A stretch of 64,000 nt of DNA, taken from positions 1 through 64,000 of the forward strand of contig BGZK01002096.1 in the NCBI GenBank assembly GCA_005406025.1, written 5' to 3'. Each line of letters begins with the position of its first letter. The stretch's first letter is position 1. The notes under the pieces were generated by a model. That model worked only from the letters and a program-made list of their open reading frames with translations. It ran no database searches and had not been told where the DNA came from. This stretch comes from Eumeta japonica. Its lineage: Eukaryota > Arthropoda > Insecta > Lepidoptera > Psychidae. Of this stretch, positions 3,001 through 37,672 are shown piece after piece. The position numbers and the translations under genes were made by a program.

Positions 3001-6000
3001 TTTTCCCAACCAGTGTTTAGTAGAAGTGCATACCGTTTTGATCATAACTTGGCTAATTTTCAAGATATCGACCTAATTCTTTTGCGTTTGATAGATAATT
3101 TTTTAGCTTTAATTTGACTACCTCTCGAATAGATGGGACAAAAAGTATTTTTCCACTAAAATGACCATGGGCTATAGCCTTTGCTTTTGCGAAAAAATGG
3201 CCGAAAAGTATGTTTTATTTTTGCAAAACGATACACAAATTAACTATTGAAATTATCTACAAAACACAAAAGAAATCATCGATATCTAAAAAATTAAAAA
3301 GTTATGAACAAAACGGTATCTAGTTATGCTGCTACTTTTCCCAACCAGTGTTTAGTAGAAGTGCATACCGTTTTGATCATAACTTTTAATTTTAAGATAT
3401 CGACCTAATTCTTTGCGTTTGATAGATAATTTTCTGAACTTTAATAATTTCAGCTACCTCTCGAATAGATGGGACAAAAAAGTATTTTCCACTAAAAATG
3501 ACCATGGGCTATAGCCTTTGCTTTTTGCGAAAAATGGCCGAAAAAGTATGTTTTTATTTTTGCAAAACGATACACCAAATTAAAGCTATTGAAATTATCT
3601 ACAAAACACAAAAGAAATCATCTCGATATCTAAAAATTAAAAAGTTATGAACAAAACGGTATCTAGTTATGCTGCTACTTTTTCCCAACCAGTGTTTAGT
3701 AGAAGTGCATACCGTTTTGATCATAACTTGCTAATTTTTAAGATATCGACCTAATTCTTTTTGCGTTTGATAGATAATTTTGCAGCTTTAATTTGAGCTA
3801 CCTCTCGAATAGATAGGACAAAAAAAGTATTTTTCCACTAAAAATGACCATGGGCTATAGCCTTTGCTTTTTGCGAAAAAATGGCCGAAAAAGTATGTTT
3901 TTATTTTTGCAAAACGATACACCAAATTAAAGCTATTGAAATTATCTACAAAACACAAAAGAAATCATCTCGATATCTAAAAATTAAAAAGTTATGAACA
4001 AAACGGTATCTAGTTATGCTGCTACTTTTTCCCAACCAGTGTTTAGTAGAAGTGCATACCGTTTTGATCATAACTTGGCTAATTTTTAAGATATCGACCT
4101 AATTCTTTTTGCGTTTGATAGATAATTTTGTTAGCTTTAATTTGTTTACCTCTCGAATAGATGGGACAAAAAGTATTTTTCCACTAAAATGACCATGGGC
4201 TATAGCCTTTGCTTTGCGAAAAATGGCCGAAAGTTTTTATTTTTGCAAAACGATACACAAATTAAAGCTATTGAAATTATCTACAAAACACAAAGAAATC
4301 ATCTCGATATCTAAAAAATTAAAAAGTTATGAACAAAACGGTATCTAGTTATGCTGCTACACCAACCAGTGTTTAGTAGAAGTGCATACCGTTTTGATCA
4401 TAACTTGGTTAATTTTAAGATATCGACCTAATTCTTTTGCGTTTGATAGATAATTTTGTAACTTTAATTTGAACTACCTCTCGATAGATGGGACAAAAAA
4501 GTATTTTTCCACTAAAATGACCATGGGCTATAGCCTTTGCTTTTGCGAAAAATGGCCGAAAAGTATGTTTTATTTTGCAAAACGATACACCAAATTAAGC
4601 TATTGAAATTATCTACAAAACACAAAGAAATCATCTCGATATCTAAAAATTAAAAAGTTATGAACAAAACGGTATCTAGTTATGCTGCTACTTTTTCCCA
4701 ACCAGTGTTTAGTAGAAGTGCATACCGTTTTGATCATAACTTGGTTAATTTTAAGATATCGACCTAATTCTTTTGCGTTTGATAGATAATTTTGTTAACT
4801 TTAATTTGAGCTACCTCTCGAATAGATGGGACAAAAAAGTATTTTTCCACTAAAATGACCATGGGCTATAGCCTTTGCTTTTGCGAAAAATGGCCGAAAA
4901 GTTATGTTTTGCAAAACGATACACAAATTAAAGCTATTGAAATTATCTACAAAACACAAAGAAATCATCTCGATATCTAAAAATTAAAAGTTATGAACAA
5001 AACGGTATCTAGTTATGCTGCTACTTTTCCCAACCAGTGTTTAGTAGAAGTGCACCGTTTTGATCATAACTTGGTTAATTTTTAAGATATCGACCTAATT
5101 CTTTTGCGTTTGATAGATAATTTTTTAACTTTAATTTGAGCTACCTCTCGAATAGATAGGACAAAAAAAGTATTTTTCACTAAAATGACCATGGGCTATA
5201 GCCTTTGCTTTTGCGAAAAATGGCCGAAAAGTATGTTTTTATTTTGCAAAAGCGATACACCAAATTAAAGCTATTAAATTATCTACAAAACACAAAAGAA
5301 ATCATCTCGATATCTAAAAATTAAAAAGTTATGAACAAAACGGTATCTAGTTATGCTGCTACTTTTCCCAACCAGTGTTTAGTAGAAGTGCATACCGTTT
5401 TGATCATAACTGGTTAATTTTAAGATATCGACCTAATTCTTTTGCGTTTGATAGATAATTTTGTAACTTTAATTTGAGCTACCTCTCGAATAGATGGGAC
5501 AAAAAAGTATTTTTCCACTAAAATGACCATGGGCTATAGCCTTTGCTTTTTGCGAAAAATGGCCGAAAAAGTATGTTTTATTTTTGCAAAAACATACAAA
5601 ATTAAGCTATTAAATTATCTACAAAACACAAAAGAAATCATCTCGATATCTAAAAATTAAAAGTTATGAACAAAACGGTATCTAGTTATGCTGCTACTTT
5701 TCCCAACCAGTGTTTAGTAGAAGTGCATACCGTTTTGATCATAACTTTGTTAATTTTTAAGATATCGACCTAATTCTTTTGCGTTTGATAGATAATTTTG
5801 TTAACTTTAATTTGAGCTACCTCTCGAATAGATGGGACAAAAAGTATTTTTCCACTAAAATGACCATGGGCTATAGCCTTTGCTTTTGCGAAAAATGGCC
5901 GAAAAAGTATGTTTTTTTTTGCAAAAACGATACACCAAATTAAAGCTATTGAAATTATCTACAAAACACAAAGAAATCATCTCGATATCTAAAAATTAAA

Positions 6001-9000
6001 AGTTATGAACAAAACGGTATCTAGTTATGCTGCTACTTTTTCCAACCAGTGTTTAGTAGAAGTGCATACCGTTTTGATCATAACTTTAATTTTAAGATAT
6101 CGACCTAATTCTTTTGCGTTTGATAGATAATTTTTTAACTTTAATTTGAGCTACCTCGAATAGATAGGACAAAAAAGTATTTTTCACTAAAATGACCATG
6201 GGCTATAGCCTTTGCTTTTGCGAAAAATGGCCGAAAAGTATGTTTTTATTTTGCAAAAGCGATACACCAAATTAAAGCTATTGAAATTATCTACAAAACA
6301 CAAAGAAATCATCTCGATATCTAAAAATTAAAAAGTTATGAACAAAACGGTATCTAGTTATGCTGCTACTTTTTCCCAACCAGTGTTTAGTAGAAGTGCA
6401 TACCGTTTTGATCATAACTTGGTTAATTTTCAAGATATCGACCTAATTCTTTTTGCGTTTGATAGATAATTTTGTTAACTTTAATTTGAGCTACCTCTCG
6501 AATAGATCGGACAAAAAAAGTATTTTTCCACTAAAAATGACCATGGGCTATAGCCTTTGCTTTTTGCGAAAAATGGCCGAAAAAGTATGTTTTTATTTTT
6601 GCAAAAGCGATACACCAAATTAAAGCTATTAAATTATCTACAAAACACAAAAGAAATCATCTCGATATCTAAAAATTAAAAGTTATGAACAAAACGGTAT
6701 CTAGTTATGCTGCTACTTTTTCCAACCAGTGTTTAGTAGAAGTGCATACCGTTTTGATCATAACTTGGTTAATTTTAAGATATCGACCTAATTCTTTTTG
6801 CGTTTGATAGATAATTTTGCTAACTTTAATTTGAGCTACCTCTCGAATAGATAGGACAAAAAAAGTATTTTTCACTAAAATGACCATGGGCCTTTGCTTT
6901 TTGCGAAAAAATGGCCGAAAAAGTATGTTTTATTTTTGCAAAAGCGATACACCAAATTAAAGCTATTGAAATTATCTACAAAACACAAAAGAAATCATCT
7001 CGATATCTAAAAATTTAAAAAAGTTATGAACAAAACGGTATCTAGTTATGCTGCTACTTTTTCCCAACCAGTGTTTAGTAGAAGTGCATACCGTTTTGAT
7101 CATAACTTGTTAAGTTTTTAAGATATCGACCTAATTCTTTTGCGTTTGATAGATAATTTTAACTTTAATTTGAGCTACCTCTCGAATAGATAGGACAAAA
7201 AAAGTATTTTTCCACTAAAAATGACCATGGGCTATAGCCTTTGCTTTTTGCGAAAAATGGCCGAAAAGTATGTTTTATTTTTGCAAAAGCGATACACCAA
7301 ATTAAAGCTATTGAAATTATCTACAAAACACAAAAGAAATCATCTCGATATCTAAAAATTTAAAAAAGTTATGAACAAAACGGTATCTAGTTATGCTGCT
7401 ACTTTTTCCCAACCAGTGTTTAGTAGAAGTGCATACCGTTTTGATCATAACTTGGTTAATTTTAAGATATCGACCTAATTCTTTTTGCGTTTGATAGATA
7501 ATTTTGTTAACTTTAATTTGAGCTACCTCTCGAATAGATAGGACAAAAAAAGTATTTTTCCACTAAAAATGACCATGGGCTATAGCCTTTGCTTTTTGCG
7601 AAAAATGGCCGAAAAAGTATGTTTTATTTTGCAAAAGCGATACACCAAATTAAAGCTATTGAAATTATCTACAAAACACAAAGAAATCATCTCGATATCT
7701 AAAAATTAAAAAGTTATGAACAAAACGGTATCTAGTTATGCTGCTACTTTTCCCAACCAGTGTTTAGTAGAAGTGCATACCGTTTTGATCATAACTTGGT
7801 TAATTTTAAGATATCGACCTAATTCTTTTGCGTTTGATAGATAATTTTGTTAACTTTAATTTGAGCTACCTCTCGAATAGATGGGACAAAAAAGTATTTT
7901 TCCACTAAAATGACCATGGGCTATAGCCTTTGCTTTTGCGAAAAATGGCCGAAAAAGTATGTTTTATTTTTGCAAAACGATACACCAAATTAAAGCTATT
8001 GAAATTATCTACAAAACACAAAGAAATCATCTCGATATCTAAAAATTAAAAGTTATGAACAAAACGGTATCTAGTTATGCTGCTACTTTTTCCCAACCAG
8101 TGTTTAGTAGAAGTGCATACCGTTTTGATCATAACTTGGTTAAGATATCGACCTAATTTTTTGCGTTTGATAGATAATTTTGACTTTAATTTGAGCTACC
8201 TCTCGAATAGATGGGACAAAAAGTATTTTTCCACTAAAATGACCATGGGCTATAGCCTTTGCTTTTGCGAAAAATGGCCGAAAAAGTATGTTTTATTTTT
8301 GCAAAAGCGATACACCAAATTAAAGCTATTGAAATTATCTACAAAACACAAAGAAATCATCTCGATATCTAAAAATTAAAAGTTATGAACAAAACGGTAT
8401 CTAGTTATGCTGCTACTTTTTCCCAACCAGTGTTTAGTAGAAGTGCATACCGTTTTGATCATAACTTGGTTAATTTTAAGATATCGACCTAATTCTTTTG
8501 CGTTTGATAGATAATTTTGTTAACTTTAATTTGAGCTACCTCTCGAATAGATGGGACAAAAAGTATTTTCCACTAAAATGACCATGGGCTATAGCCTTTG
8601 CTTTTGCGAAAAATGGCCGAAAAAGTATGTTTTATTTTTGCAAAAGCGATACACCAAATTAAAGCTATTGAAATTATCTACAAAACACAAAGAAATCATC
8701 TCGATATCTAAAAATTAAAAAGTTATGAACAAAACGGTATCTAGTTATGCTGCTACTTTTCCCAACCAGTGTTTAGTAGAAGTGCATACCGTTTTGATCA
8801 TAACTTGGTTAATTTTAAGATATCGACCTAATTCTTTTGCGTTTGATAGATAATTTTGTAACTTTAATTTGAGCTACCTCTCGAATAGATGGGACAAAAA
8901 GTATTTTTCCACTAAAATGACCATGGGCTATAGCCTTTGCTTTTGCGAAAAATGGCCGAAAAAGTATGTTTTTATTTTTGCAAAAGCGATACACCAAATT

Positions 9001-9737
9001 AAAGCTATTGAAATTATCTACAAAACACAAAAGAAATCATCTCGATATCTAAAAAATTAAAAAAGTTATGAACAAAACGGTATCTAGTTATGCTGCTACT
9101 TTTTCCCAACCAGTGTTTAGTAGAAGTGCATACCGTTTTGATCATAACTTGGTTAATTTTAAGATATCGACCTAATTCTTTTTGCGTTTGATAGATAATT
9201 TTGAACTTTAATTTGAGCTACCTCTCGAATAGATAGGACAAAAAAGTATTTTTCCACTAAAATGACCATGGGCTATAGCTTTTGCGAAAAATGGCCGAAA
9301 AAGTATGTTTTATTTTTGCAAAAGCGATACACCAAATTAAAGCTATTGAAATTATCTACAAAACACAAAGAAATCATCTCGATATCTAAAAATTAAAAAG
9401 TTATGAACAAAACGGTATCTAGTTATGCTGCTACTTTTCCCAACCAGTGTTTAGTAGAAGTGCATACCGTTTTGATCATAACTTGGTTAATTTTAAGATA
9501 TCGACCTAATTCTTTTGCGTTTGATAGATAATTTTGTTAACTTTAATTTGAGCTACCTCTCGAATAGATGGGACAAAAAAGTATTTTTCCACTAAAATGA
9601 CCATGGGCTATAGCCTTTGCTTTTGCGAAAAATGGCCGAAAAAGTATGTTTTATTTTTGCAAAGCGATACACCAAATTAAAGCTATTGAAATTATCTACA
9701 AAACACAAAAAATCATCTCGATATCTAAAAATTAAAA
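1..9737. repeat. Array zone 1: heterogeneous units
   Basis: Units mix gatgggac (majority) with gataggac at about 2.1, 3.8, 5.15, 6.16, 6.85, 7.19, 7.53 and 9.23 kb, plus one gatcggac near 6.5 kb. Most gatagg units here also carry longer A/T runs. Small indels are frequent in the first 3 kb. No unique sequence is present. Confidence 0.85.
1612..1958. repeat. Displaced right-end-type unit in zone 1
   Basis: From about 1841 this unit carries a set of variants otherwise seen at 53-60 kb: ggccaaaaaagtg in place of ggccgaaaaagta, aaaaccgata, ctatttaaattacctac, and atctcaaaaattaaa. The best match I can see is 57361-57475, which has all four. Its neighbours on both sides are ordinary zone 1 units. 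Confidence 0.75.
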
Positions 9738-10004
9738 GTTATGAACAAAACGGTATCTAGTTATGCTGCTACTTTTTTTAAACCAGTGTTTAGTAGAAGT
9801 GCATACCGTTTTGAGATAACTTTTTTTAAGATTCGACCTAATTTTTTGCTTTGATATTTTTCTAACTTTAGCATCTCTTATTTTTCCACTAAAATGACCA
9901 TGGGCTATAGCCTTTGAAAATGGCCGAAAAATTATGTTTTATTTTGCAAAAATACAAAATTAAATATTTTATCTAAAATCAAAAAGAATATCTAAAAATT
10001 AAAA
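9738..10004. repeat. Eroded unit, 267 bp
   Basis: After an intact core, many short deletions occur: gagataac for gatcataac, agattcgacc for agatatcgacc, loss of most of gcgtttgatagat, gagctacc and gatgggac, then caaaaatacaaaattaaat and tatctaaaatc. The flanking units are normal. Either this is a really decayed copy or a low-quality consensus patch. Confidence 0.8.
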
Positions 10005-13000
10005 GTTATGAACAAAACGGTATCTAGTTATGCTGCTACTTTTCCCAACCAGTGTTTAGTAGAAGTGCATACCGTTTTGATCATAACTTGGTTAATTTTA
10101 AGATATCGACCTAATTCTTTTGCGTTTGATAGATAATTTTGTTAACTTTAATTTGAGCTACCTCTCGAATAGATGGGACAAAAAGTATTTTCCACTAAAA
10201 TGACCATGGGCTATAGCCTTTGCTTTTGCGAAAAATGGCCGAAAAAGTATGTTTTATTTTTGCAAAAGCGATACACCAAATTAAAGCTATTGAAATTATC
10301 TACAAAACACAAAGAAATCATCTCGATATCTAAAAATTAAAAAGTTATGAACAAAACGGTATCTAGTTATGCTGCTACTTTTCCCAACCAGTGTTTAGTA
10401 GAAGTGCATACCGTTTTGATCATAACTTGGTTAATTTTAAGATATCGACCTAATTCTTTTGCGTTTGATAGATAATTTTGTTAACTTTAATTTGAGCTAC
10501 CTCGAATAGATGGGACAAAAAGTATTTTTCCACTAAAAATGACCATGGGCTATAGCCTTTGCTTTTTGCGAAAAACTGGCCGAAAAAGTATGTTTTTATT
10601 TTTGCAAAAGCGATACACCAAATTAAAGCTATTAAAATTATCTACAAAACACAAAAGAAATCATCTCGATATCTAAAAATAAAAAAGTTATGAACAAAAC
10701 GGTATCTAGTTATGCTGCTACTTTTTCCCAACCAGTGTTTAGTAGAAGTGCATACCGTTTTGATCATAACTTGGTTAATTTTCAAGATATCGACCTAATT
10801 CTTTTTGCGTTTGATAGATAATTTTGTTAACTTTAATTTGAGCTACCTCTCGAATAGATAGGACAAAAAAAGTATTTTTCCACTAAAAATGACCATGGGC
10901 TATAGCCTTTGCTTTTGCGAAAAATGGCCGAAAAAGTATGTTTTATTTTTGCAAAACGATACACCAAATTAAAGCTATTGAAATTATCTACAAAACACAA
11001 AGAAATCATCTCGATATCTAAAAATTAAAAAGTTATGAACAAAACGGTATCTAGTTATGCTGCTACTTTTCCCAACCAGTGTTTAGTAGAAGTGCATACC
11101 GTTTTGATCATAACTTGGTTAATTTTAAGATATCGACCTAATTCTTTTGCGTTTGATAGATAATTTTGTTAACTTTAATTTGAGCTACCTCTCGAATAGA
11201 TGGGACAAAAAGTATTTTTCCACTAAAATGACCATGGGCTATAGCCTTTGCTTTTGCGAAAAATGGCCGAAAAAGTATGTTTTATTTTTGCAAAACGATA
11301 CACCAAATTAAAGCTATTGAAATTATCTACAAAACACAAAGAAATCATCTCGATATCTAAAAATTAAAAAGTTATGAACAAAACGGTATCTAGTTATGCT
11401 GCTACTTTTCCCAACCAGTGTTTAGTAGAAGTGCATACCGTTTTGATCATAACTTGGTTAATTTTAAGATATCGACCTAATTCTTTTGCGTTTGATAGAT
11501 AATTTTGTTAACTTTAATTTGAGCTACCTCGAATAGATGGGACAAAAAGTATTTTTCCTAAAATGACCATGGGCTATAGCCTTTGCTTTTGCGAAAAATG
11601 GCCGAAAAAGTATGTTTTATTTTTGCAAAACGATACACCAAATTAAAGCTATTGAAATTATCTACAAAACACAAAGAAATCATCTCGATATCTAAAAATT
11701 AAAAAGTTATGAACAAAACGGTATCTAGTTATGCTGCTACTTTTTCCCAACCAGTGTTTAGTAGAAGTGCATACCGTTTTGATCATAACTTGTTAATTTT
11801 AAGATATCGACCTAATTCTTTTGCGTTTGATAGATAATTTTGTTAACTTTAATTTGAGCTACCTCTCGAATAGATGGGACAAAAAGTATTTTTCCACTAT
11901 GGGCTATAGCCTTTGCTTTTGCGAAAAATGGCCGAAAAAGTATGTTTTATTTTTGCAAAACGATACACCAAATTAAAGCTATTGAAATTATCTACAAAAC
12001 ACAAAGAAATCATCTCGATATCTAAAAATTAAAAAGTTATGAACAAAACGGTATCTAGTTATGCTGCTACTTTTTCCCAACCAGTGTTTAGTAGAAGTGC
12101 ATACCGTTTTGATCATAACTTGGTTAATTTTAAGATATCGACCTAATTCTTTTGCGTTTGATAGATAATTTTGTTAACTTTAATTTGAGCTACCTCTCGA
12201 ATAGATGGGACAAAAAGTATTTTTCCACTAAAATGACCATGGGCTATAGCCTTTGCTTTTGCGAAAAATGGCCGAAAAAGTATGTTTTTATTTTTGCAAA
12301 AGCGATACACCAAATTAAAGCTATTGAAATTATCTACAAAACACAAAAGAAATCATCTCGATATCTAAAAATTAAAAAGTTATGAACAAAACGGTATCTA
12401 GTTATGCTGCTACTTTTTCCCAACCAGTGTTTAGTAGAAGTGCATACCGTTTTGATCATAACTTGGTTAATTTTAAGATATCGACCTAATTCTTTTGCGT
12501 TTGATAGATAATTTTGAACTTTAATTTGAGCTACCTCTCGAATAGATGGGACAAAAAAGTATTTTTCCACTAAAATGACCATGGGCTATAGCCTTTGCTT
12601 TTGCGAAAAATGGCCGAAAAAGTATGTTTTATTTTTGCAAAACGATACACCAAATTAAAGCTATTGAAATTATCTACAAAACACAAAGAAATCATCTCGA
12701 TATCTAAAAATTAAAAAGTTATGAACAAAACGGTATCTAGTTATGCTGCTACTTTTCCCAACCAGTGTTTAGTAGAAGTGCATACCGTTTTGATCATAAC
12801 TTGGTTAATTTTAAGATATCGACCTAATTCTTTTGCGTTTGATAGATAATTTTGTTAACTTTAATTTGAGCTACCTCTCGAAGATGGACAAAAAGTATTT
12901 TTCCACTAAAATGACCATGGGCTATAGCCTTTGCTTTTGCGAAAAATGGCCGAAAAAGTATGTTTTATTTTTGCAAAAGCGATACACCAAATTAAAGCTA

Positions 13001-13259
13001 TTGAAATTATCTACAAAACACAAAGAAATCATCTCGATATCTAAAAATTAAAAAGTTATGAACAAAACGGTATCTAGTTATGCTGCTACTTTTCCCAACC
13101 AGTGTTTAGTAGAAGTGCATACCGTTTTGATCATAACTTGGTTAATTTTAAGATATCGACCTAATTCTTTTGCGTTTGATAGATAATTTTGTTAACTTTA
13201 ATTTGAGCTACCTCTCGAATAGATGGGACAAAAAGTATTTTTCCACTAAAATGACCATG

Positions 13260-13269
13260 GGCTATAGCC
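13260..13269. repeat. Dyad 2 centre: perfect palindrome ggctatagcc
   Basis: The 10-bp perfect palindrome sits 171.5 bp before and, in the next copy, 168.5 bp after the dyad 1 centre, that is, half a period away. A tandem array of inverted half-units must have two symmetry centres per period, and this is the second. The context gaccatgggctatagcc is nearly invariant along the window; the overlapping ccatgg is also palindromic. Confidence 0.85.
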
Positions 13270-13436
13270 TTTGCTTTTGCGAAAAATGGCCGAAAAAGTA
13301 TGTTTTATTTTTGCAAAAGCGATACACCAAATTAAAGCTATTGAAATTATCTACAAAACACAAAGAAATCATCTCGATATCTAAAAATTAAAAAGTTATG
13401 AACAAAACGGTATCTAGTTATGCTGCTACTTTTCCC
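13265..13436 (+). repeat. Half-unit A (~172 bp) of the inverted pair
   Basis: This is the half of the unit between the two dyad centres (ggctatagcc and the hairpin spacer). Read on the plus strand it matches the minus-strand reading of 13437-13604. Matching pairs in order: caaattaaag (13328-13337) with ctttaatttg (13536-13545); aaattatcta (13344-13353) with tagataattt (13520-13529); tcgatatct (13374-13382) with agatatcga (13491-13499); gttatgaacaaaacggtat (13395-13413) with ataccgttttgatcataac (13459-13477). The first three pairs sum to 26873, so they share one symmetry centre without indels; the innermost pair is off by one base, in the A run. Confidence 0.9.
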
Positions 13437-13552
13437 AACCAGTGTTTAGTAGAAGTGCATACCGTTTTGATCATAACTTGGTTAATTTTAAGATATCGAC
13501 CTAATTCTTTTGCGTTTGATAGATAATTTTGTTAACTTTAATTTGAGCTACC
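13321..13552. repeat. Long inverted repeat (dyad 1), 93/94-nt arms, 45-nt spacer
   Basis: Left arm 13321-13413, right arm 13459-13552. Hand alignment of this copy gives about 73 matches in 94 columns, highest next to the spacer (18 of 19). Spacer 13414-13458 shows only slight further symmetry. Copies with longer A runs (for example the left arm ending just before 25520) align without the one-base gap. A single strand could fold into a hairpin of about 90 imperfect base pairs; duplex DNA could extrude a cruciform. One copy of this structure occurs in each intact unit. Confidence 0.9.
13395..13477. repeat. Most conserved core of the unit (~83 bp), inner hairpin
   Basis: This stretch comprises the two 19-nt inner arms and the 45-nt spacer with gttatgctgct and accagtgtttagtagaagtg. 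It is the least variable part of the unit. Even the eroded unit at 9738-10004 keeps most of it while the rest is full of deletions. Variation here is mainly in the length of the T run before ccaacc and in rare variants (aacaagtg, gtgattag, gtgtatacc). It has fewer long A/T runs than the rest, which could in part explain its stability. A protein-binding role is possible but unproven. Confidence 0.8.
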
Positions 13553-13604
13553 TCTCGAATAGATGGGACAAAAAGTATTTTTCCACTAAAATGACCATGG
13601 GCTA
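13437..13604 (-). repeat. Half-unit B (~168 bp), inverted copy of A
   Basis: Reverse complement relative of half-unit A (13265-13436). The inner ~94 positions align with about three quarters identity. Towards the ggctatagcc centre the match weakens and needs gaps: ccactaaaaatg and tatttttcc face tggccgaaaaagtat. The inverted pair occurs in essentially every intact unit, so the inversion predates amplification of the array. Confidence 0.85.
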
Positions 13605-15100
13605 TAGCCTTTGCTTTTGCGAAAAATGGCCGAAAAAGTATGTTTTATTTTTGCAAAAGCGATACACCAAATTAAAGCTATTGAAATTATCTACAAAACA
13701 CAAAGAAATCATCTCGATATCTAAAAATTAAAAAGTTATGAACAAAACGGTATCTAGTTATGCTGCTACTTTTCCCAACCAGTGTTTAGTAGAAGTGCAT
13801 ACCGTTTTGATCATAACTTGGTTAATTTTAAGATATCGACCTAATTCTTTTGCGTTTGATAGATAATTTTGTTAACTTTAATTTGAGCTACCTCTCGAAT
13901 AGATGGGACAAAAAGTATTTTTCCACTAAAATGACCATGGGCTATAGCCTTTGCTTTTGCGAAAAATGGCCGAAAAAGTATGTTTTTATTTTTGCAAAAC
14001 GATACACCAAATTAAAGCTATTGAAATTATCTACAAAACACAAAGAAATCATCTCGATATCTAAAAATTAAAAAGTTATGAACAAAACGGTATCTAGTTA
14101 TGCTGCTACTTTTCCCAACCAGTGTTTAGTAGAAGTGCATACCGTTTTGATCATAACTTGGTTAATTTTAAGATATCGACCTAATTCTTTTGCGTTTGAT
14201 AGATAATTTTCTTTAATTTGAGCTACCTCTCGAATAGATAGGACAAAAAAGTATTTTTCCACTAAAATGACCATGGGCTATAGCCTTTGCTTTTGCGAAA
14301 AATGGCCGAAAAAGTATGTTTTATTTTTGCAAAAGCGATACACCAAATTAAAGCTATTGAAATTATCTACAAAACACAAAGAAATCATCTCGATATCTAA
14401 AAATTAAAAAGTTATGAACAAAACGGTATCTAGTTATGCTGCTACTTTTCCCAACCAGTGTTTAGTAGAAGTGCATACCGTTTTGATCATAACTTGGTTA
14501 ATTTTAAGATATCGACCTAATTCTTTTGCGTTTGATAGATAATTTTGTTAACTTTAATTTGAGCTACCTCTCGAATAGATAGGACAAAAAGTATTTTTCC
14601 ACTAAAATGACCATGGGCTATAGCCTTTGCTTTTGCGAAAAATGGCCGAAAAAGTATGTTTTATTTTTGCAAAAGCGATACACCAAATTAAAGCTATTGA
14701 AATTATCTACAAAACACAAAGAAATCATCTCGATATCTAAAAATTAAAAAGTTATGAACAAAACGGTATCTAGTTATGCTGCTACTTTTCCCAACCAGTG
14801 TTTAGTAGAAGTGCATACCGTTTTGATCATAACTTGTTAATTTTAAGATATCGACCTAATTCTTTTGCGTTTGATAGATAATTTTGTTAACTTTAATTTG
14901 AGCTACCTCTCGAATAGATAGGACAAAAAGTATTTTTCCACTAAAATGACCATGGGCTATAGCCTTTGCTTTTGCGAAAAATGGCCGAAAAAGTATGTTT
15001 TATTTTGCAAAAGCGATACACCAAATTAAAGCTATTGAAATTATCTACAAAACACAAAGAAATCATCTCGATATCTAAAAATTAAAAAGTTATGAACAAA

Positions 15101-18100
15101 ACGGTATCTAGTTATGCTGCTACTTTTTCCAACCAGTGTTTAGTAGAAGTGCATACCGTTTTGATCATAACTTGGTTAATTTTTAAGATATCGACCTAAT
15201 TCTTTTTGCGTTTGATAGATAATTTTGTAACTTTAATTTGAGCTACCTCTCGAATAGATAGGACAAAAAAAGTATTTTTCCACTAAAAATGACCATGGGC
15301 TATAGCCTTTGCTTTTTGCGAAAAAATGGCCGAAAAAGTATGTTTTTATTTTTGCAAAAGCGATACACCAAATTAAAGCTATTGAAATTATCTACAAAAC
15401 ACAAAAGAAATCATCTCGATATCTAAAAAATTTAAAAAGTTATGAACAAAACGGTATCTAGTTATGCTGCTACTTTTCCCAACCAGTGTTTAGTAGAAGT
15501 GCATACCGTTTTGATCATAACTTGGATAATTCTTTTATAGATAATTTTGCTACCTTTCGAATAGATAGGACAAAAAAGTATTTTTCCACTAAAATGACCA
15601 TGGGCTATAGCCTTTGCTTTTGCGAAAAATGGCCGAAAAATATGTTTTATTTTTGCAAAACCGATACACCAAATTAAAGCTATTAAAATTATCTACAAAA
15701 CACAAAAGAAATCATCTCGATATCTAAAAAATTTAAAAAGTTATGAACAAAACGGTATCTAGTTATGCTGCTACTTTTTCCCAACCAGTGTTTAGTAGAA
15801 GTGCATACCGTTTTGATCATAACTTGGTTAATTTTAAGATATCGACCTAATTCTTTTTGCGTTTGATAGATAATTTTGTTAACTTTAATTTGAGCTACCT
15901 CTCGAATAGATAGGACAAAAAAAGTATTTTTCCACTAAAAATGACCATGGGCTATAGCCTTTGCTTTTTGCGAAAAATGGCCGAAAAAGTATGTTTTATT
16001 TTTGCAAAAGCGATACACCAAATTAAAGCTATTGAAATTATCTACAAAACACAAAAGAAATCATCTCGATATCTAAAAATTAAAAAGTTATGAACAAAAC
16101 GGTATCTAGTTATGCTGCTACTTTTTCCCAACCAGTGTTTAGTAGAAGTGCATACCGTTTTGATCATAACTTGGTAATTTTAAGATATCGACCTAATTCT
16201 TTTTGCGTTTGATAGATAATTTTGTTAACTTTAATTTGAGCTACCTCTTGAATAGATAGGACAAAAAGTATTTTTCCACTAAAAATGACCATGGGCTATA
16301 GCCTTTGCTTTTTGCGAAAAAATGGCCGAAAAATTATGTTTTATTTTTGCAAAAGCGATACACCAAATTAAAGCTATTGAAATTATCTACAAAACACAAA
16401 AAATCATCTCGATATCTAAAAAATTTAAAAAGTTATGAACAAAACGGTATCTAGTTATGCTGCTACTTTTCCCAACCAGTGTTTAGTAGAAGTGCATACC
16501 GTTTTGATCATAACTTGGTTAATTTTTAAGATATCGACCTAATTCTTTTTGCGTTTGATAGATAATTTTGTTAACTTTAATTTGAGCTACCTCTCGAATA
16601 GATAGGACAAAAAAAGTATTTTTCCACTAAAAATGACCATGGGCTATAGCCTTTGCTTTTTGCGAAAAAATGGCCGAAAAAGTATGTTTTATTTTTGCAA
16701 AACGATACACCAAATTAAAGCTATTGAAATTATCTACAAAACACAAAAGAAATCATCTCGATATCTAAAAATTAAAAGTTATGAACAAAACGGTATCTAG
16801 TTATGCTGCTACTTTTTCCCAACCAGTGTTTAGTAGAAGTGCATACCGTTTTGATCATAACTTAGTAATTTTAAGATATCGACCTAATTCTTTTTGCGTT
16901 TGATAGATAATTTTGTTAACTTTAATTTGAGCTACCTCTCGAATAGATAGGACAAAAAAGTATTTTTCCACTAAAAATGACCATGGGCTATAGCCTTTGC
17001 TTTTTGCGAAAAAATGGCCGAAAAAGTATGTTTTATTTTTGCAAAAGCGATACACCAAATTAAAGCTATTGAAATTATCTACAAAACACAAAGAAATCAT
17101 CTCGATATCTAAAAATTAAAAGTTATGAACAAAACGGTATCTAGTTATGCTGCTACTTTTTCCCAACCAGTGTTTAGTAGAAGTGCATACCGTTTTGATC
17201 ATAACTTGTTAATTTTAAGATATCGACCTAATTCTTTTTGCGTTTGATAGATAATTTTGTTAACTTTAATTTGAGCTACCTCTCGAATAGATAGGACAAA
17301 AAAAGTATTTTTCCACTAAAAATGACCATGGGCTATAGCCTTTGCTTTTTGCGAAAAAATGGCCGAAAAAGTATTTTTATTTTTGCAAAAGCGATACACC
17401 AAATTAAAGCTATTGAAATTATCTACAAAACACAAAAGAAATCATCTCGATATCTAAAAATTAAAAGTTATGAACAAAACGGTATCTAGTTATGCTGCTA
17501 CTTTTTCCCAACCAGTGTTTAGTAGAAGTGCATACCGTTTTGATCATAACTTGGTAATTTTAAGATATCGACCTAATTCTTTTTGCGTTTGATAGATAAT
17601 TTTGTTAACTTTAATTTGAGCTACCTCTCGAATAGATAGGACAAAAAGTATTTTTCCACTAAAAATGACCATGGGCTATAGCCTTTGCTTTTTGCGAAAA
17701 AATGGCCGAAAAAGTATGTTTTATTTTGCAAAAGCGATACACCAAATTAAAGCTATTGAAATTATCTACAAAACACAAAGAAATCATCTCGATATCTAAA
17801 AATTAAAAAGTTATGAACAAAACGGTATCTAGTTATGCTGCTACTTTTCCCAACCAGTGTTTAGTAGAAGTGCATACCGTTTTGATCATAACTTGGTAAT
17901 TTTAAGATATCGACCTAATTCTTTTGCGTTTGATAGATAATTTTGTTAACTTTAATTTGAGCTACCTCTCGAATAGATGGGACAAAAAAGTATTTTTCCA
18001 CTAAAATGACCATGGGCTATAGCCTTTGCTTTTGCGAAAAATGGCCGAAAAAGTATGTTTTATTTTTGCAAAAGCGATACACCAAATTAAAGCTATTGAA

Positions 18101-19350
18101 ATTATCTACAAAACACAAAGAAATCATCTCGATATCTAAAAATTAAAAAGTTATGAACAAAACGGTATCTAGTTATGCTGCTACTTTTTCCCAACCAGTG
18201 TTTAGTAGAAGTGCATACCGTTTTGATCATAACTTGGTAATTTTAAGATATCGACCTAATTCTTTTGCGTTTGATAGATAATTTTGTTAACTTTAATTTG
18301 AGCTACCTCGAATAGATAGGACAAAAAGTATTTTTCCACTAAAATGACCATGGGCTATAGCCTTTGCTTTTGCGAAAAATGGCCGAAAAAGTATGTTTTA
18401 TTTTGCAAAAGCGATACACCAAATTAAAGCTATTAAATTATCTACAAAACACAAAAGAAATCATCTCGATATCTAAAAATTAAAAAGTTATGAACAAAAC
18501 GGTATCTAGTTATGCTGCTACTTTTTCCCAACCAGTGTTTAGTAGAAGTGCATACCGTTTTGATCATAACTTGGTTAATTTTAAGATATCGACCTAATTC
18601 TTTTTGCGTTTGATAGATAATTTTGTTAACTTTAATTTGAGCTACCTCTGAATAGATAGGACAAAAAGTATTTTTCCACTAAAAATGACCATGGGCTATA
18701 GCCTTTGCTTTTTGCGAAAAAATGGCCGAAAAAGTATGTTTTTAATTTTGCAAAAGCGATACACCAAATTAAAGCTATTGAAATTATCTACAAAACACAA
18801 AAGAAATCATCTCGATATCTAAAAATTAAAAAGTTATGAACAAAACGGTATCTAGTTATGCTGCTACTTTTTCCCAACCAGTGTTTAGTAGAAGTGCATA
18901 CCGTTTTGATCATAACTTGGTTAATTTTTAAGATATCGACCTAATTCTTTTTGCGTTTGATAGATAATTTTGTAAACTTTAATTTGAGCTACCTTTCGAA
19001 TAGATAGGACAAAAAAAGTATTTTTCCACTAAAAATGACCATGGGCTATAGCCTTTGCTTTTTGCGAAAAAATGGCCGAAAAAGTATGTTTTTATTTTTG
19101 CAAAAGCGATACACCAAATTAAAGCTATTGAAATTATCTACAAAACACAAAAGAAATCATCTCGATATCTAAAAAATTAAAAAAGTTATGAACAAAACGG
19201 TATCTAGTTATGCTGCTACTTTTCCCAACCAGTGTTTAGTAGAAGTGCATACCGTTTTGATCATAACTTGGTTAATTTTTAAGATATCGACCTAATTCTT
19301 TTTGCGTTTGATAGATAATTTTGTTAACTTTAATTTGAGCTACCTCGAAT
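15101..19350. repeat. Array zone 3: gataggac units with long A/T runs
   Basis: Most units carry gataggacaaaaaaagta, ttctttttgcg, ctaaaaatgacc and gctttttgcgaaaaaatgg. Exceptions with short runs and one gatgggac occur near 17.9-18.4 kb. The shift from zone 2 affects several A/T runs at once. Confidence 0.75.
15439..15739. repeat. Unit with internal deletions in half-unit B (301 bp)
   Basis: After gatcataacttgg the sequence reads ataattcttttatagataattttgctacc, written here in pieces: ataattctttt, atagataatttt, gctacc. The gatatcga element, gcgtttg and the ctttaatttgag element are lost, so this copy cannot form the outer arms of dyad 1. The neighbouring units are intact. Confidence 0.75.
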
Positions 19351-19857
19351 AGATAGGACAAAAAGTATTTTCCACTAAAATGACCATGGGCTATAGCCTT
19401 TGCTTTTGCGAAAAATGGCCGAAAAAGTATGTTTTATTTTTGCAAAAGCGATACACCAAATTAAACTATTGAAATTATCTACAAAACACAAAGAAATCAT
19501 CTCGATATCTAAAAATTAAAAGTTATGAACAAAACGGTATCTAGTTATGCTGCTACTTTTTCCCAACCAGTGTTTAGTAGAAGTGCATACCGTTTTGATC
19601 ATAACTGTTAATTTTAAGATATCGACCTAATTCTTTTGCGTTTGATAGATAATTTTGTAACTTTAATTTGAGCTACTCGAATAGATGGGACAAAAAAGTA
19701 TTTTTCCACTAAAATGACCATGGGCTATAGCCTTTGCTTTTGCGAAAAATGGCCGAAAAGTATGTTTTATTTTGCAAAAGCGATACACCAAATTAAAGCT
19801 ATTGAAATTATCTACAAAACACAAAGAAATCATCTCGATATCTAAAAAATTAAAAAA

Positions 19858-20158
19858 GTTATGAACAAAACGGTATCTAGTTATGCTGCTACTTTTTCCC
19901 AACCAGTGTTTAGTAGAAGTGCATACCGTTTTGATCATAACTTGGTTAATTTTTAAGATATCGACCTAATTCTTTTTGCGTTTGATAGATAATTTTCTGA
20001 ACTTTAATTTGAGCTACCTCTCAAATAGATGGGGCTTTTTTTTGCGAAAAATGGCCGAAAAAGTATGTTTTTTTTTTTGCAAAGCGTACACCAAATTAAA
20101 GCTATTGAAATTATCTACAAAACACAAAGAAATCATCTCGATATCTAAAAAATTAAAA
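19858..20158. repeat. Unit deleted across dyad 2 (301 bp)
   Basis: At about 20030-20036 the text runs from aatagatgggg directly into cttttttttgcg. The normal stretch acaaaaagta through ccatgggctatagcctttg is missing (about 50 bp), so the ggctatagcc palindrome is lost. The remaining parts are ordinary. Confidence 0.8.
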
Positions 20159-20487
20159 GTTATGAACAAAACGGTATCTAGTTATGCTGCTACTTTCCCA
20201 ACCAGTGTTTAGTAGAAGTGCATACCGTTTTGATCATAACTTGGTTTTTTAAGATATCGACCTAATTCTTTGCGTTTGATAGATAATTTTGAACTTTAAT
20301 TTGAGCTACCTCTCGATAGATGGGACAAAAAGTATTTTTCCACTAAAATGACCATGGGCTATAGCCTTTGCTTTTGAAAAATGGCCGAAAAAGTATGTTT
20401 TTATTTTTGCAAAACGATACACCAAATTAAAGCTATTGAAATTATCTACAAAACACAAAGAAATCATCGATATCTAAAAATTAAAAA

Positions 20488-20778
20488 GTTATGAACAAAA
20501 CGGTATCTAGTTATGCTGCTACTTTTCCCAACCAGTGTTTAGTAGAAGTGCATACCGTTTTGATCATAACTTGGTAATTTTAAGATATCGACCTAATTCT
20601 TTGCGTTTGATAGATAATTTTCTAAACTTTAATTTGACTACCTCTAAAATAGATAGGGCTTTTTGCGAAAAAATGGCCGAAAAAGTATGTTTTATTTTTG
20701 CAAAATATACACCAAATTAAAGCTATTGAAATTATCTACAAACACAAAGAAATCATCTCGATATCTAAAAATTAAAAA
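20488..20778. repeat. Second unit deleted across dyad 2 (291 bp)
   Basis: At about 20655-20662 aatagataggg joins ctttttgcgaaaa, nearly the same junction as in the unit at 19858-20158, two units upstream. Shared breakpoints suggest one deletion copied to a nearby unit, or a recurrent event at the same microhomology (ggg next to the ctt run). Confidence 0.8.
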
Positions 20779-23700
20779 GTTATGAACAAAACGGTATCTA
20801 GTTATGCTGCTACTTTTCCCAACCAGTGTTTAGTAGAAGTGCATACCGTTTTGATCATAACTTGGTTAATTTTTAGATATCGACCTAATTCTTTTGCGTT
20901 TGATAGATAATTTTAAGCTTTAATTTGAGCTACCTCTCGATAGATGGGACAAAAAAGTATTTTTCCACTCAAAATGACCATGGGCTATAGCCTTTGCTTT
21001 TTGCGAAAAATGGCCGAAAAATTATGTTTTATTTTTGCAAAAGCGATACACCAAATTAAAGCTATTGAAATTATCTACAAAACAAAAGAAATCATCTCGA
21101 TATCTAAAATTAAAAGTTATGAACAAAACGGTATCTAGTTATGCTGCTACTTTTTCCCAACCAGTGTTTAGTAGAAGTGCATACCGTTTTGATCATAACT
21201 TGGTTAATTTTTAAGATATCGACCTAATTCTTTTTGCGTTTGATAGATAATTTTGTTAACTTTAATTTGAGCTACATAGATGGGACAAAAAAGTATTTTT
21301 CCACTAAAATGACCATGGGCTATAGCCTTTGCTTTTGCGAAAAATGGCCGAAAAAGTATGTTTTTATTTTGCAAAAGCGATACCCAAATTAAAGTATTGA
21401 AATTATCTACAAAACACAAAGAAATCATCTCGATATCTAAAAATTAAAAGTTATGAACAAAACGGTATCTAGTTATGCTGCTACTTTTCCCAACCAGTGT
21501 TTAGTAGAAGTGCATACCGTTTTGATCATAACTTGGTTAATTTTAAGATATCGACCTAATTCTTTTGCGTTTGATAGATAATTTTGTTAACTTTAATTTG
21601 AGCTACCTCTCGAATAGATGGGACAAAAAAGTATTTTTCCACTAAAATGACCATGGGCTATAGCCTTTGCTTTTGCGAAAAATGGCCGAAAAAGTATGTT
21701 TTATTTTGCAAAAGCGATACGCCAAATTAAAGCTATTAAAATTATCTACAAAACACAAAAGAAATCATCTCGATATCTAAAAATTAAAAAGTTATGAACA
21801 AAACGGTATCTAGTTATGCTGCTACTTTTCCCAACCAGTGTTTAGTAGAAGTGCATACCGTTTTGATCATAACTTGGTTAATTTTAAGATATCGACCTAA
21901 TTCTTTTGCGTTTGATAGATAATTTTTTAACTTTAATTTGAGCTACCTCTCGAATAGATGGGACAAAAGTATTTTCCACTAAAATGACCATGGGCTATAG
22001 CCTTTGCTTTTGCGAAAAATGGCCGAAAAATTATGTTTTATTTTTGCAAAACGATACACCAAATTAAAGCTATTGAAATTATCTACAAAACACAAAGAAA
22101 TCATCTCGATATCTAAAAATTAAAAAGTTATGAACAAAACGGTATCTAGTTATGCTGCTACTTTTTCCCAACCAGTGTTTAGTAGAAGTGCATACCGTTT
22201 TGATCATAACTTGGTAATTTTTAAGATATCGACCTAATTCTTTTGCGTTTGATAGATAATTTTTTAACTTTAATTTGAGCTACCTTTCGAATAGATAGGG
22301 ACAAAAAGTATTTTTCCACTAAAATGACCATGGGCTATAGCCTTTGCTTTTTTGAAAAATGGCCGAAAAAGTATGTTTTATTTTTGCAAAAGCGATACAC
22401 CAAATTAAATATTGAAATTATCTACAAAACACAAAGAAATCATCTCGATATCTAAAATTAAAAGTTATGAACAAAACGGTATCTAGTTATGCTGCTACTT
22501 TTCCCAACCAGTGTTTAGTAGAAGTGCATACCGTTTTGATCATAACTTGTTAATTTTAAGATATCGACCTAATTCTTTGCGTTTGATAGATAATTTTGAA
22601 CTTTAATTTGAGCTACCTCTCGAATAGATGGGACAAAAAAGTATTTTTCCACTAAAATGACCATGGGCTATAGCCTTTGCTTTTGCGAAAAATGGCCGAA
22701 AAAGTATGTTTTATTTTTGCAAAAACGATACACCAAATTAAAGCTATTGAAATTATCTACAAACACAAAGAAATCATCTCGATATCTAGAAAATTAAAAA
22801 AAGTTATGAACAAAACGGTATCTAGTTATGCTGCTACTTTTTCCCAACCAGTGTTTAGTAGAAGTGCATACCGTTTTGATCATAACTTCGTAATTTTAAG
22901 ATATCGACCTAATTCTTTTTGCGTTTGATAGATAATTTTGTTAACTTTAATTTGAACTACCTCTTGAATAGATAGGACAAAAAAATTATTTTTCCACTAA
23001 AAATGACCATGGGCTATAGCCTTTGCTTTTTGCGAAAAATGGCCGAAAAATTATGTTTCTATTTTGCAAAAACGATGCACCAAATTAAAGCTATTGAAAT
23101 TATCTACAAAACACAAAAGAAATCATCTCGATATCTAAAAAATTAAAAAAGTTATGAACAAAACGGTATCTAGTTATGCTGCTACTTTTTCCCAACCAGT
23201 GTTTAGTAGAAGTGCATACCGTTTTGATCATAACTTGGTAATTTTAAGATATCGACCTAATTCTTTTTGCGTTTGATAGATAATTTTGTTAACTTTAATT
23301 TGAGCTACCTCTCGAATAGATAGGACAAAAAAAGTATTTTTCCACTAAAAATGACCATGGGCTATAGCCTTTGCTTTTGCGAAAAATGGCCGAAAAATAT
23401 GTTTTTATTTTTGCAAAACGATACACAAATTAAACTATTAAAATTATCTACAAAACACAAAGAAATCATCTCGATATCTAAAAATTAAAAAGTTATGAAC
23501 AAAACGGTATCTAGTTATGCTGCTACTTTTCCCCAACAGTGTTTAGTAGAAGTGCATACCGTTTTGATCATAACTTGGTTAATTTTAAGATATCGACCTA
23601 ATTCTTTTGCGTTTGATAGATAATTTTGTTAACTTTAATTTGAGCTACCTCTCAGATAGATAGGACAAAAAGTATTTTCCACTAAAATGACCATGGGCTA

Positions 23701-26700
23701 TAGCCTTTGCTTTTGCGAAAAATGGCCGAAAAAGTATGTTTTTATTTTTGCAAAACATACACCAAATTAAAGCTATTGAAATTATCTACAAAACACAAAA
23801 GAAATCATCTCGATATCTAAAAATTAAAAGTTATGAACAAAACGGTATCTAGTTATGCTGCTACCCCAACCAGTGTTTAGTAGAAGTGCATACCGTTTTG
23901 ATCATAACTTGGTTAATTTTAAGATATCGACCTAATTCTTTTGCGTTTGATAGATAATTTTGTTAACTTTAATTTGAGCTACCTCTCAGATAGATGGGAC
24001 AAAAAGTATTTTTCCACTAAAATGACCATGGGCTATAGCCTTTGCTTTTGCGAAAAATGGCCGAAAAAGTATGTTTTTATTTTTGCAAAACGATACACCA
24101 AATTAAAGCTATTGAAATTATCTACAAAACACAAAGAAATCATCTCGATATCTAAAAATTAAAAGTTATGAACAAAACGGTATCTAGTTATGCTGCTACT
24201 TTTCCCAACCAGTGTTTAGTAGAAGTGCATACCGTTTTGATCATAACTTGGTTAATTTTAAGATATCGACCTAATTCTTTTGCGTTTGATAGATAATTTT
24301 TAACTTTAATTTGAGCTACCTCTCGAATGATGGGACAAAAAGTATTTTCCACTAAAATGACCATGGGCTATAGCCTTTGCTTTTTGAAAAAATGGCCGAA
24401 AATATGTGTTTTTATTTTTACAAAAACGATACACCAAATTCAAGCTATTGAAATTATCTACAAAACACAAAGAAATCATCTCGATATCTAAAAATTAAAA
24501 AGTTATGAACAAAACGGTATCTAGTTATGCTGCTACTTTCCCAACCAGTGTTTAGTAGAAGTGCATACCGTTTTGATCATAACTTGGTTGTTTTAAGATA
24601 TCGACCTAATTCTTTTGCGTTTGATAGATAATTTTTTAACTTTAATTTGAGCTACCTCTTGAATAGATAGGACAAAAAGTATTTTCCACTAAAATGACCA
24701 TGGGCTATAGCCTTTGCTTTTGCGAAAAATGGCCGAAAAAGTATGTTTTTATTTTTGCAAAACGATACACCAAATTAAAGCTATTGAAATTATCTACAAA
24801 ACACAAAGAAATCATCGATATCTAAAAAATTAAAAAGTTATGAACAAAACGGTATCTAGTTATGCTGCTACTTTCCCAACCAGTGTTTAGTAGAAGTTAC
24901 CGTTTTGATCATAACGGTTAATTTTAAGATATCGACCTAATTGCGTTTGATAGATAATTTTGTTAACTTTAATTTGAGCTACCTCTCAGATAGATAGGAC
25001 AAAGTATTTTTCCACTAAAATGACCATGGGCTATAGCCTTTGCTTTTGCGAAAAAGTATGTTTTATTTTTGCAAAAACGATACACCAAATTGAAGCTATT
25101 GAAATTATCTACAAAACACAAAAGAAATCATCTCGATATCTAAAAAATTAAAAAAGTTATGAACAAAACGGTATCTAGTTATGCTGCTACTTTTTCCCAA
25201 CCAGTGTTTAGTAGAAGTGCATACCGTTTTGATCATAACTTGGTAATTTTAAGATATCGACCTAATTCTTTTTGCGTTTGATAGATAATTTTGAACTTTA
25301 ATTTGAGCTACCTCTCGAATAGATAGGACAAAAAAAGTATTTTTCCACTAAAAATGACCATGGGCTATAGCCTTTGCTTTTTGCGAAAAAATGGCCGAAA
25401 AAGTATGTTTTTATTTTTGCAAAAACGATACACCAAATTAAAGCTATTGAAATTATCTACAAAACACAAAAGAAATCATCTCGATATCTAAAAAATTAAA
25501 AAAGTTATGAACAAAACGGTATCTAGTTATGCTGCTACTTTTTCCCAACCAGTGTTTAGTAGAAGTGCATACCGTTTTGATCATAACTTGGTTAATTTTA
25601 AGATATCGACCTAATTCTTTTTGCGTTTGATAGATAATTTTGAACTTTAATTTGAGCTACCTCTCGAATAGATGGGACAAAAAGTATTTTTTTTCCACTA
25701 AAATGACCATGGGCTATAGCCTTTGCTTTTTGCGAAAAAATGGCCGAAAAGTATGTTTTATTTTTGCAAAACGATACACAAATTAAAGCTATTGAAATTA
25801 TCTACAAAACACAAAAGAAATCATCTCGATATCTAAAAAATTAAAAGTTATGAACAAAACGGTATCTAGTTATGCTGCTTTTTCCCCACCAGTGTTTAGT
25901 AGAAGTGCATACCGTTTTGATCATAACGGTTAATTTTAAGATATCGACCTAATTCTTTTGCGTTTGATAGATAATTTTGTTAACTTTAATTTGAGCTACC
26001 TCTCGAATAGATGGGACAAAAGTATTTTCCACTAAAATGACCATGGGCTATAGCCTTTGCTGCGAAAAAATGGCCGAAAAAGTATGTTTTATTTTTGCAA
26101 AAACGATACACCAAATTAAAGCTATTGAAATTATCTACAAAACACAAAAGAAATCATCTCGATATCTAAAAAATTAAAAAAGTTATGAACAAAACGGTAT
26201 CTAGTTATGCTGCTACTTTTCCCAACCAGTGTTTAGTAGAAGTGCATACCGTTTTGATCATAACTTTGTTAATTTTAAGATATCGACCTAATTCTTTTGC
26301 GTTTGATAGATAATTTTGAACTTTAATTTGAGCTACCTCTCGAATAGATGGGACAAAAAGTATTTTCCACTAAAATGACCATGGGCTATAGCCTTTGCTT
26401 TTCGAAAAAATGGCCGAAAAAGTATGTTTTTATTTTTGCAAAAGCGTACACACAAATTAAAGCTATGAAATTATCTACAAAACACAAAATCATCTCGATA
26501 TAAAAATTAAAAAGTTATGAACAAAACGGTATCTAGTTATGCTGCTACTTTTCCAACCAGTGTTTAGTAGAAGTGCATACCGTTTTGATCATAACTTTTA
26601 ATTTTAAGATATCGACCTAATTCTTTTGCGTTTGATAGATAATTTTGTAACTTTAATTTGAGCTACCTCTCGAATGATGGGACAAAAAAGTATTTTCCAC

Positions 26701-27851: not shown

Positions 27852-28027
27852 GTTATGAACAAACGGTCTAATTAATGGGACCAAAAGAGTATTTTTCCAC
27901 ACTAAAAGTGATACTTAGACTTATATGGCCGAAAAAGTATGTTTTTGTTTTTGCAAGAAACTGCACCAAGGTTGATAATATTAAAAGTATCTAAAAACCT
28001 AAAATCCCATCGATATCTAAAATTAAA
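27852..28027. repeat. Truncated, diverged unit (176 bp) lacking the dyad core
   Basis: The left inner arm gttatgaacaaacggt is followed at once by ctaattaatgggacc, so the spacer, right arm and most of half-unit B are absent (about 145 bp relative to the reference). The rest is also altered: ccacactaaaagtgatac, gcaagaaactgcaccaagg. It then continues into a degraded core (gattataacaaagtatc). Confidence 0.8.
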
Positions 28028-31032: not shown

Positions 31033-31049
31033 GTTATGAACAAAACGGT

Positions 31050-37670: not shown

Positions 37671-37672
37671 AA

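What the first reader, a model, noticed from the sequence alone, without database searches (positions are those of the whole stretch)
13265..13604. The 340-bp unit is an inverted pair of ~170-bp half-units: the whole array is a chain of alternating palindromes
Seen directly: four element pairs mirror each other around 13436, with three pairs giving exactly the same coordinate sum (26873). A second dyad (ggctatagcc) sits half a period away, as geometry requires for tandem inverted dimers. By hand the inner arms match at about 73 of 94 columns. Independent support: open frames on opposite strands give related peptides (LIDNFVNFNL / FVDNFNSFNL; VMNKTV / VMIKTV; AYRFDHN / RYRFVHN). Most satellites are built from direct, not inverted, subunits. 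Such an array can form many cruciforms, and 170 bp is close to a nucleosome repeat.
Basis: seen in the sequence. Interest (0 to 1): 0.9.

Follow-up and report, generated by a model that had tools for sequence, protein, structure and literature searches.

The report
Satellite DNA with inverted-repeat units
The whole window is one long array of a roughly 340-base AT-rich satellite repeat, and each repeat carries two related 88-base segments facing in opposite directions; this arrangement is uncommon but already known from a few insect satellites.

Summary
It is far beyond chance: self-reverse-complement score of the consensus 151, maximum 54 in 1000 shuffles. Clear inverted similarity covers two ~88-bp arms (71 of 88 columns identical), about half of the unit. 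The rest is a ~43-bp loop and a ~122-bp spacer. The second dyad is a 10-bp palindrome; without its core the spacer halves look like shuffles (454 of 2000 reach the score). So this is best read as a composite monomer of two inverted subunits plus spacers, not a proven chain of inverted 170-bp half-units. Units average 96.8% identity to their consensus while the two arms match at ~80%, so the dimer is what is homogenised. Support for selected pairing is weak and mixed. The arms share a mirror-image conserved/variable profile. Published parallels exist (Tribolium brevicornis, T. madens TmSat2, Trichogramma brassicae). Verdict: new member of a known kind; species unidentified.

The parts
1..64000 (+). 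continuous head-to-tail array of the ~340-bp satellite unit, in one orientation
   Evidence: TRF periods 334-340 in the main rows; 63,806 of 64,000 bases covered by plus-strand matches to one unit; 166 plus and 0 minus anchors found
13265..13604 (+). one repeat unit (reference copy, 340 bp; the consensus of 170 units has 342 columns)
13328..13414 (+). arm A, ~87 bp
   Evidence: reverse-complement match to arm B, 71 of 88 consensus columns identical
13415..13457 (+). central spacer (loop) around the dyad centre 13436.5; no inverted similarity between its halves
   Evidence: 585 of 1000 shuffles reach the observed score
13458..13545 (-). arm B, ~88 bp, inverted relative of arm A
   Evidence: the 218-nt A-loop-B segment folds as DNA at -47.1 kcal/mol, z -10
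13546..13667 (+). outer spacer, ~122 bp, running into the next unit; halves not clearly related beyond the palindrome core
   Evidence: DNA fold z -2.1, 8 of 200 shuffles as good
13600..13609 (.). second dyad: 10-bp perfect palindrome inside the longest conserved run of the unit (31 bp, consensus 326 to 14)
   Evidence: sequence; conserved run
13273..13320 (.). small secondary inverted repeat inside the outer spacer (arms 13273-13286 and 13308-13320)
   Evidence: sequence; hairpin in the fold of the equivalent stretch one unit on
27736..28492 (+). disturbed stretch with two of four truncated units that lack the loop and arm B, and two of the four uncovered gaps of 10 bp or more
   Evidence: BLAST pieces, uncovered 27868-27924 and 28473-28492, sequence read by eye
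30712..30904 (+). truncated unit lacking the loop and arm B (unit positions ~142-292)
33973..34172 (+). truncated unit lacking most of the loop and arm B; a 16-bp palindrome is left at the junction

Best explanation
A eukaryotic AT-rich satellite DNA (about 30% GC) whose ~340-bp monomer is composite: two copies of an ~88-bp subunit in opposite orientation, separated by a ~43-bp loop and a ~122-bp spacer. An old inverted duplication joined the two arms. The whole 340-bp unit was later amplified head to tail and is homogenised as one unit by unequal exchange, conversion or rolling-circle reinsertion (inferred). The arms therefore evolve as two separate lineages. Its likely place is (peri)centromeric or other constitutive heterochromatin (inferred from class). 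Each arm most likely acts, if at all, as a module that binds a protein or positions chromatin and works in either orientation (inferred). A hairpin or cruciform is possible, but nothing here shows that it is selected.
For: Tandem array over the 64 kb. Inverted repeat far beyond shuffles. Similarity confined to the arms: global score 53 against 14 as the best of 1000 mononucleotide shuffles; loop like shuffles; outer spacer marginal with the palindrome core and like shuffles without it. 170 units average 96.8% identity to the consensus, while arms A and B match at ~80%: the dimer is the homogenised unit. Same-unit A/B identity 0.795, cross-unit 0.797: arms of one unit do not track each other. 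Positions identical in both arms vary less among units (0.90%) than positions where the arms differ (2.86%; Mann-Whitney p 0.005). Smoothed variability of arm A and mirrored arm B correlates at r 0.76 in register and 0.00 and -0.16 at shifts of -12 and +12.
Against: The shared variability profile could reflect sequence-driven mutability or alignment effects near A/T runs; its best shift tested is -4 (r 0.79), unsmoothed correlation is only 0.29 in register, and a few common variants weigh heavily in the means. Weak hints of pairing exist: double changes at paired columns were 11 against 5.0 expected (2 of 300 shuffles as many), of which 4 form Watson-Crick pairs (1.7 expected, 23 of 300); at mismatched pairs 16 of 35 distinct one-sided changes restore a pair (one third expected, p 0.09). 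Relatedness among units inflates such counts. The outer spacer score with the core was reached by only 22 of 1000 shuffles, so a much diverged 170-bp half-unit is not excluded. Species, chromosomal location, transcripts and binding are unknown.
Confidence: 0.75

Rival explanations
1. True inverted dimer of 170-bp monomers: the full half-units are homologous and the spacers have diverged past recognition, so the array alternates between two palindrome types. (This competes with the composite reading; the other two rivals concern function and origin and could hold beside it.)
For: Two dyads half a period apart; outer spacer halves including the 10-bp palindrome score above most shuffles (22 of 1000 reach it); whole half-units align at 117 of 181 columns, gaps included; the smoothed variability profile of the whole unit has its best mirror axis 4 to 7 columns from the dyad.
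Against: Without the palindrome core the outer halves are like shuffles (454 of 2000), as are the 30 bp next to the arms (520 of 2000), and this axis ranks 24th of 342 for 60-bp flanks; the loop halves too are like shuffles (585 of 1000).
Confidence: 0.2
2. Structure-selected satellite: hairpins or cruciforms of the inverted repeat are functional, for example in centromere specification, and selection maintains arm pairing.
For: The 218-nt segment folds well below shuffles (DNA z -10, RNA z -11). Slight excess of double changes and of pair-restoring changes. Published proposals for satellite dyads in Tribolium madens (PMC13081366, abstract and passages seen).
Against: A and B arms of one unit are no more complementary than arms of different units (0.795 versus 0.797); about 20% of arm columns are mismatched or gapped; the covariation hints are weak and inflated by relatedness. 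Any inverted duplication folds well.
Confidence: 0.12
3. The unit derives from a foldback or miniature inverted-repeat transposon whose copy was tandemised.
For: Long inverted arms around a short loop with an unrelated spacer; [quoted passage not shown]
Against: Dispersed copies and target duplications could not be looked for in the source genome. The viral, prokaryote, phage and plasmid collections gave nothing beyond 19-25-bp chance matches, which says little about a eukaryote.
Confidence: 0.15

Closest known systems
Tribolium brevicornis 1061-bp satellite (Mravinac et al. 2005; paper not held, described in a passage of PMC13081366)
   Same: long inversely oriented segments inside one monomer of a satellite
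   Different: segments ~470 bp there, ~88 bp here; sequence relation not testable here
TmSat2 of Tribolium madens (PMC13081366, abstract and passages seen)
   Same: subunits in opposite orientation form a palindrome-like monomer
   Different: ~300-bp inverted repeats in a 704-bp unit; arrays there also reverse orientation (macro-dyads), not seen in this 64-kb window
Trichogramma brassicae 385-bp satellite (Landais et al. 2000; paper not held, described in a passage of PMC13081366)
   Same: closest in dimensions: 80-bp inverted repeats in a 385-bp unit, against ~88-bp arms in ~340 bp
   Different: sequence not available here, so homology untested
Palorus subdepressus 72/144-bp satellite (passage in PMC8122249)
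   Same: inverted repeat inside the unit and two sequence classes alternating as a dimer
   Different: much shorter unit with 22-bp inverted-repeat units

Membership tests
Satellite DNA | long head-to-tail array of near-identical units | tested here: met
   TRF rows spanning nearly the whole window; 63,806 of 64,000 bases covered; 170 full units average 96.8% identity to the consensus
Satellite DNA | no coding content | tested here: inconclusive
   ORFs up to 73 aa recur with the unit; one protein search with the 73-aa ORF had 1 candidate and no hit at E 0.001; no expression data
Satellite DNA | heterochromatic or (peri)centromeric location | not testable with these tools
   no non-satellite flank in the window; own-genome search did not complete
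Satellites with long inversely oriented subunits | inverted related subunits of about 80 bp or more within each monomer | tested here: met
   two ~88-bp arms, 71 of 88 columns identical, 0 of 1000 shuffles as good
Satellites with long inversely oriented subunits | sequence homology to a described member | not testable with these tools
   no eukaryotic sequence collection is held
Tribolium-type macro-dyad arrays | reversal of array orientation | tested here: not met
   0 minus-strand anchors against 166 plus; none of 189 minus matches extends outside unit positions 50-295; only 64 kb seen
Dimer of direct ~170-bp monomers | direct similarity of the two halves | tested here: inconclusive
   best direct half/half score 27 over 18 rotations; 8 of 300 dinucleotide shuffles reach it, max 29, none of 60 mononucleotide shuffles. 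Marginal at best, and tiny beside the inverted score of 151
CENP-B-box satellites | 17-bp CENP-B box (consensus recalled) | tested here: not met
   best match 11 of 17; 83 of 200 shuffles do as well; core version 188 of 200
Foldback/MITE-derived satellite | dispersed single copies with target-site duplications | not testable with these tools

The most novel reading that the evidence does not exclude
The two arms are orientation-independent protein-binding or chromatin-positioning modules under shared selection. They have kept the same conserved and variable blocks in mirror image after diverging by ~20%, giving an array of modules with regularly alternating polarity that acts in heterochromatin or centromere chromatin.
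Probability: 0.12. Interest if true: 0.6.

Novelty: new member of a known kind. Interest (0 to 1): 0.27.

Why it matters
Long dyads within satellite repeats are described as 'not so common' (PMC13081366, passage), so another example helps ask whether inverted structure matters in heterochromatin. Comparing arm A with mirrored arm B gives a simple internal test: constraint on each arm predicts mirrored conservation without covariation, while selected cruciforms predict covariation. Here the data lean to the former. Otherwise this is an ordinary satellite array.

Tried and rejected
Rfam scan of 12900-14700: three weak hits to one microRNA family (a plant family by recall), at most 22.9 bits against a 245-bit cut-off; rejected as an effect of the hairpin shape. 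Prokaryotic, phage, plasmid and viral sources: no match to two units in phages and plasmids at distant sensitivity, nor to an exact 25-mer in viral and genome contigs. A 19-base pattern with one free position hit 7 genome and 3 viral contigs, but the best match of each of these 10 loci to the consensus is 19-25 bp: chance. Protein search with the 73-aa ORF: no hit at E 0.001. CENP-B box: chance level. Higher-order periodicity: identity between the 170 aligned units is flat at 0.95 for lags 1 to 24, so no sign of a higher-order repeat up to that size. Conversion between arms of one unit: not seen. AA/TT ~10-bp phasing: 10 of 300 shuffles as strong, too weak to use. Direct similarity of halves: marginal. 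Two original papers (T. brevicornis, Trichogramma) are not held; what is said of them comes from passages of PMC13081366. Passages of PMC4107277 were seen and added nothing specific. Searches for parallels in print were made; only open-licence papers are covered, and I did not establish whether this satellite itself is published.

Full report
What is there. The window is one satellite array. TRF reports periods of 334-340 bp in its main rows over practically all of it, with two local rows of 196 and 201 bp. Plus-strand matches to one unit cover 63,806 of 64,000 bases; the uncovered stretches of 10 bp or more are 57, 30, 20 and 13 bp long. GC is 28.7-31.1% in 2-kb steps. One orientation only was found: 166 plus and 0 minus anchors (a fuzzy anchor that misses some units), and none of the 189 minus BLAST pieces extends outside the palindrome region. 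170 of 195 plus BLAST pieces are full-length units; the other 25 were left out of the alignment. Their consensus has 342 columns, mean identity to it is 96.8%, mean substitution 1.5%. Identity between aligned units is 0.95 at every lag from 1 to 24, so there is no sign of a higher-order repeat.

The reported palindrome. The consensus scores 151 against its reverse complement; 1000 dinucleotide shuffles gave mean 26.2, sd 5.5, max 54. In direct orientation the halves score 27 at best over 18 rotations: 0 of 60 mononucleotide shuffles and 8 of 300 dinucleotide shuffles reach that, a marginal signal.

How far the mirror reaches. Arms A (consensus 64-150) and B (195-282) are identical at 71 of 88 alignment columns; global score 53 against a maximum of 14 in 1000 mononucleotide shuffles. 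The loop halves are at chance (585 of 1000 shuffles as good). The outer spacer halves reach a score met by 22 of 1000 shuffles with the 10-bp palindrome included, but by 454 of 2000 without it, and the 30 bp next to the arms by 520 of 2000. Among all 342 possible axes for 60-bp flanks this one ranks 24th. The whole half-units align at 117 of 181 columns, gaps included. The unit is thus arm A, loop, arm B inverted, spacer. Two full 170-bp inverted half-units are not shown, nor strictly excluded. The second dyad at 13600-13609 is a 10-bp palindrome within the longest conserved run of the unit (31 bp).

Evolution of the arms. In about 400 random draws A copies match each other at 0.965 and B copies at 0.952, while A and B match at 0.795 within a unit (170 units) and 0.797 between units. 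So the inverted duplication is old, the 340-bp unit is homogenised as a whole, and the arms of a unit do not track each other. Signs the other way are weak: double changes at paired columns, 11 seen against 5.0 expected (2 of 300 shuffles as many), of which 4 Watson-Crick against 1.7 (23 of 300); at mismatched pairs 16 of 35 distinct one-sided changes restore a pair (66 of 155 cells), where one third is expected (p 0.09 for 16 of 35). These controls ignore relatedness among units.

Mirror-symmetric variability. Among 87 arm pairs, positions identical between A and B (71 pairs) vary at 0.90% among units, positions that differ (16 pairs) at 2.86%, the rest of the unit at 1.71% (matched versus mismatched p 0.005; matched versus outside p 0.0001; mismatched versus outside p 0.68). 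Along the arms, smoothed variability of A correlates with mirrored B at 0.76 in register, 0.79 at shift -4, 0.49 at -8, 0.31 at +4, -0.10 at +8, 0.00 at -12 and -0.16 at +12; unsmoothed (Spearman) at 0.29 in register and 0.42 at -1. Over the whole unit the best mirror axes lie 4 to 7 columns from the dyad at smoothing windows of 5 to 21, where the dyad's own axis ranks 9th or 10th of 342; unsmoothed the best axis lies elsewhere and the dyad ranks 15th. Cells within two columns of a gap were left out. Either both arms carry the same constrained blocks, or the same sequence-driven mutability; these data do not separate the two.

Structure. The 218-nt A-loop-B segment folds at -47.1 kcal/mol as DNA (shuffles -15.5, z -10) and -74.1 as RNA (z -11); the outer spacer only at -15.5 (z -2.1, 8 of 200 shuffles as good). 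Any inverted duplication would do this, so it shows potential, not use.

Known parallels. PMC13081366 (abstract and passages seen) calls longer dyads within satellite repeats 'not so common' and lists Trichogramma brassicae (80-bp inverted repeats in 385 bp), Tribolium brevicornis (~470 bp in 1061 bp) and its own TmSat2 (~300 bp in 704 bp). PMC8122249 (passages) lists predicted dyad or cruciform structures in satellites of Diadromus, Eupelmus, Tribolium, Trichogramma and Chironomus, and a Palorus satellite of 72-bp repeats whose variants alternate as 144-bp dimers. So the arrangement is a known kind. Homology to any of these could not be tested, because no eukaryotic sequences are held and the own-genome search did not complete. 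That the host is an insect is my guess from the resemblance in design.

Verdict. Observation confirmed; interpretation partly supported; a new member of a known kind of satellite with modest interest. The most interesting residue is the mirrored conservation profile of the two arms.

Noticed in passing
27736-28492, 30712-30904, 33973-34172: Four truncated units within ~6.5 kb of the array lack nearly the same part: from the inner end of arm A (unit position ~141-148) to about the outer end of arm B or just past it (~283-297). Seen in the BLAST pieces and by eye; their junction sequences differ. Either recurrent hairpin-related deletion or one old event that decayed. The gap listing skipped segments over 520 bp, so it covers only one of the four.
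   Followed up: partly
34099-34119: The junction of the truncated unit holds a 16-bp perfect palindrome that looks like arm-A or inverted arm-B sequence fused to arm B, as a deletion across a hairpin centre would leave (read by eye).
   Followed up: partly
9611-10213: Two consecutive short units (297 and 306 bp) with many small deletions and T runs, unlike their neighbours; possible low-quality assembly.
   Followed up: no
whole array: Full units vary from 297 to 351 bp, partly through indels in homopolymers (gap rate 2.7% in runs of 4 or more against 1.4% elsewhere); slippage or long-read error.
   Followed up: partly
62001-64000: GC skew changes sign in the last 2 kb, the BLAST pieces there are 89-93% identical to the reference unit, and a 30-bp stretch at 62109-62138 does not match; no change of orientation.
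   Followed up: partly
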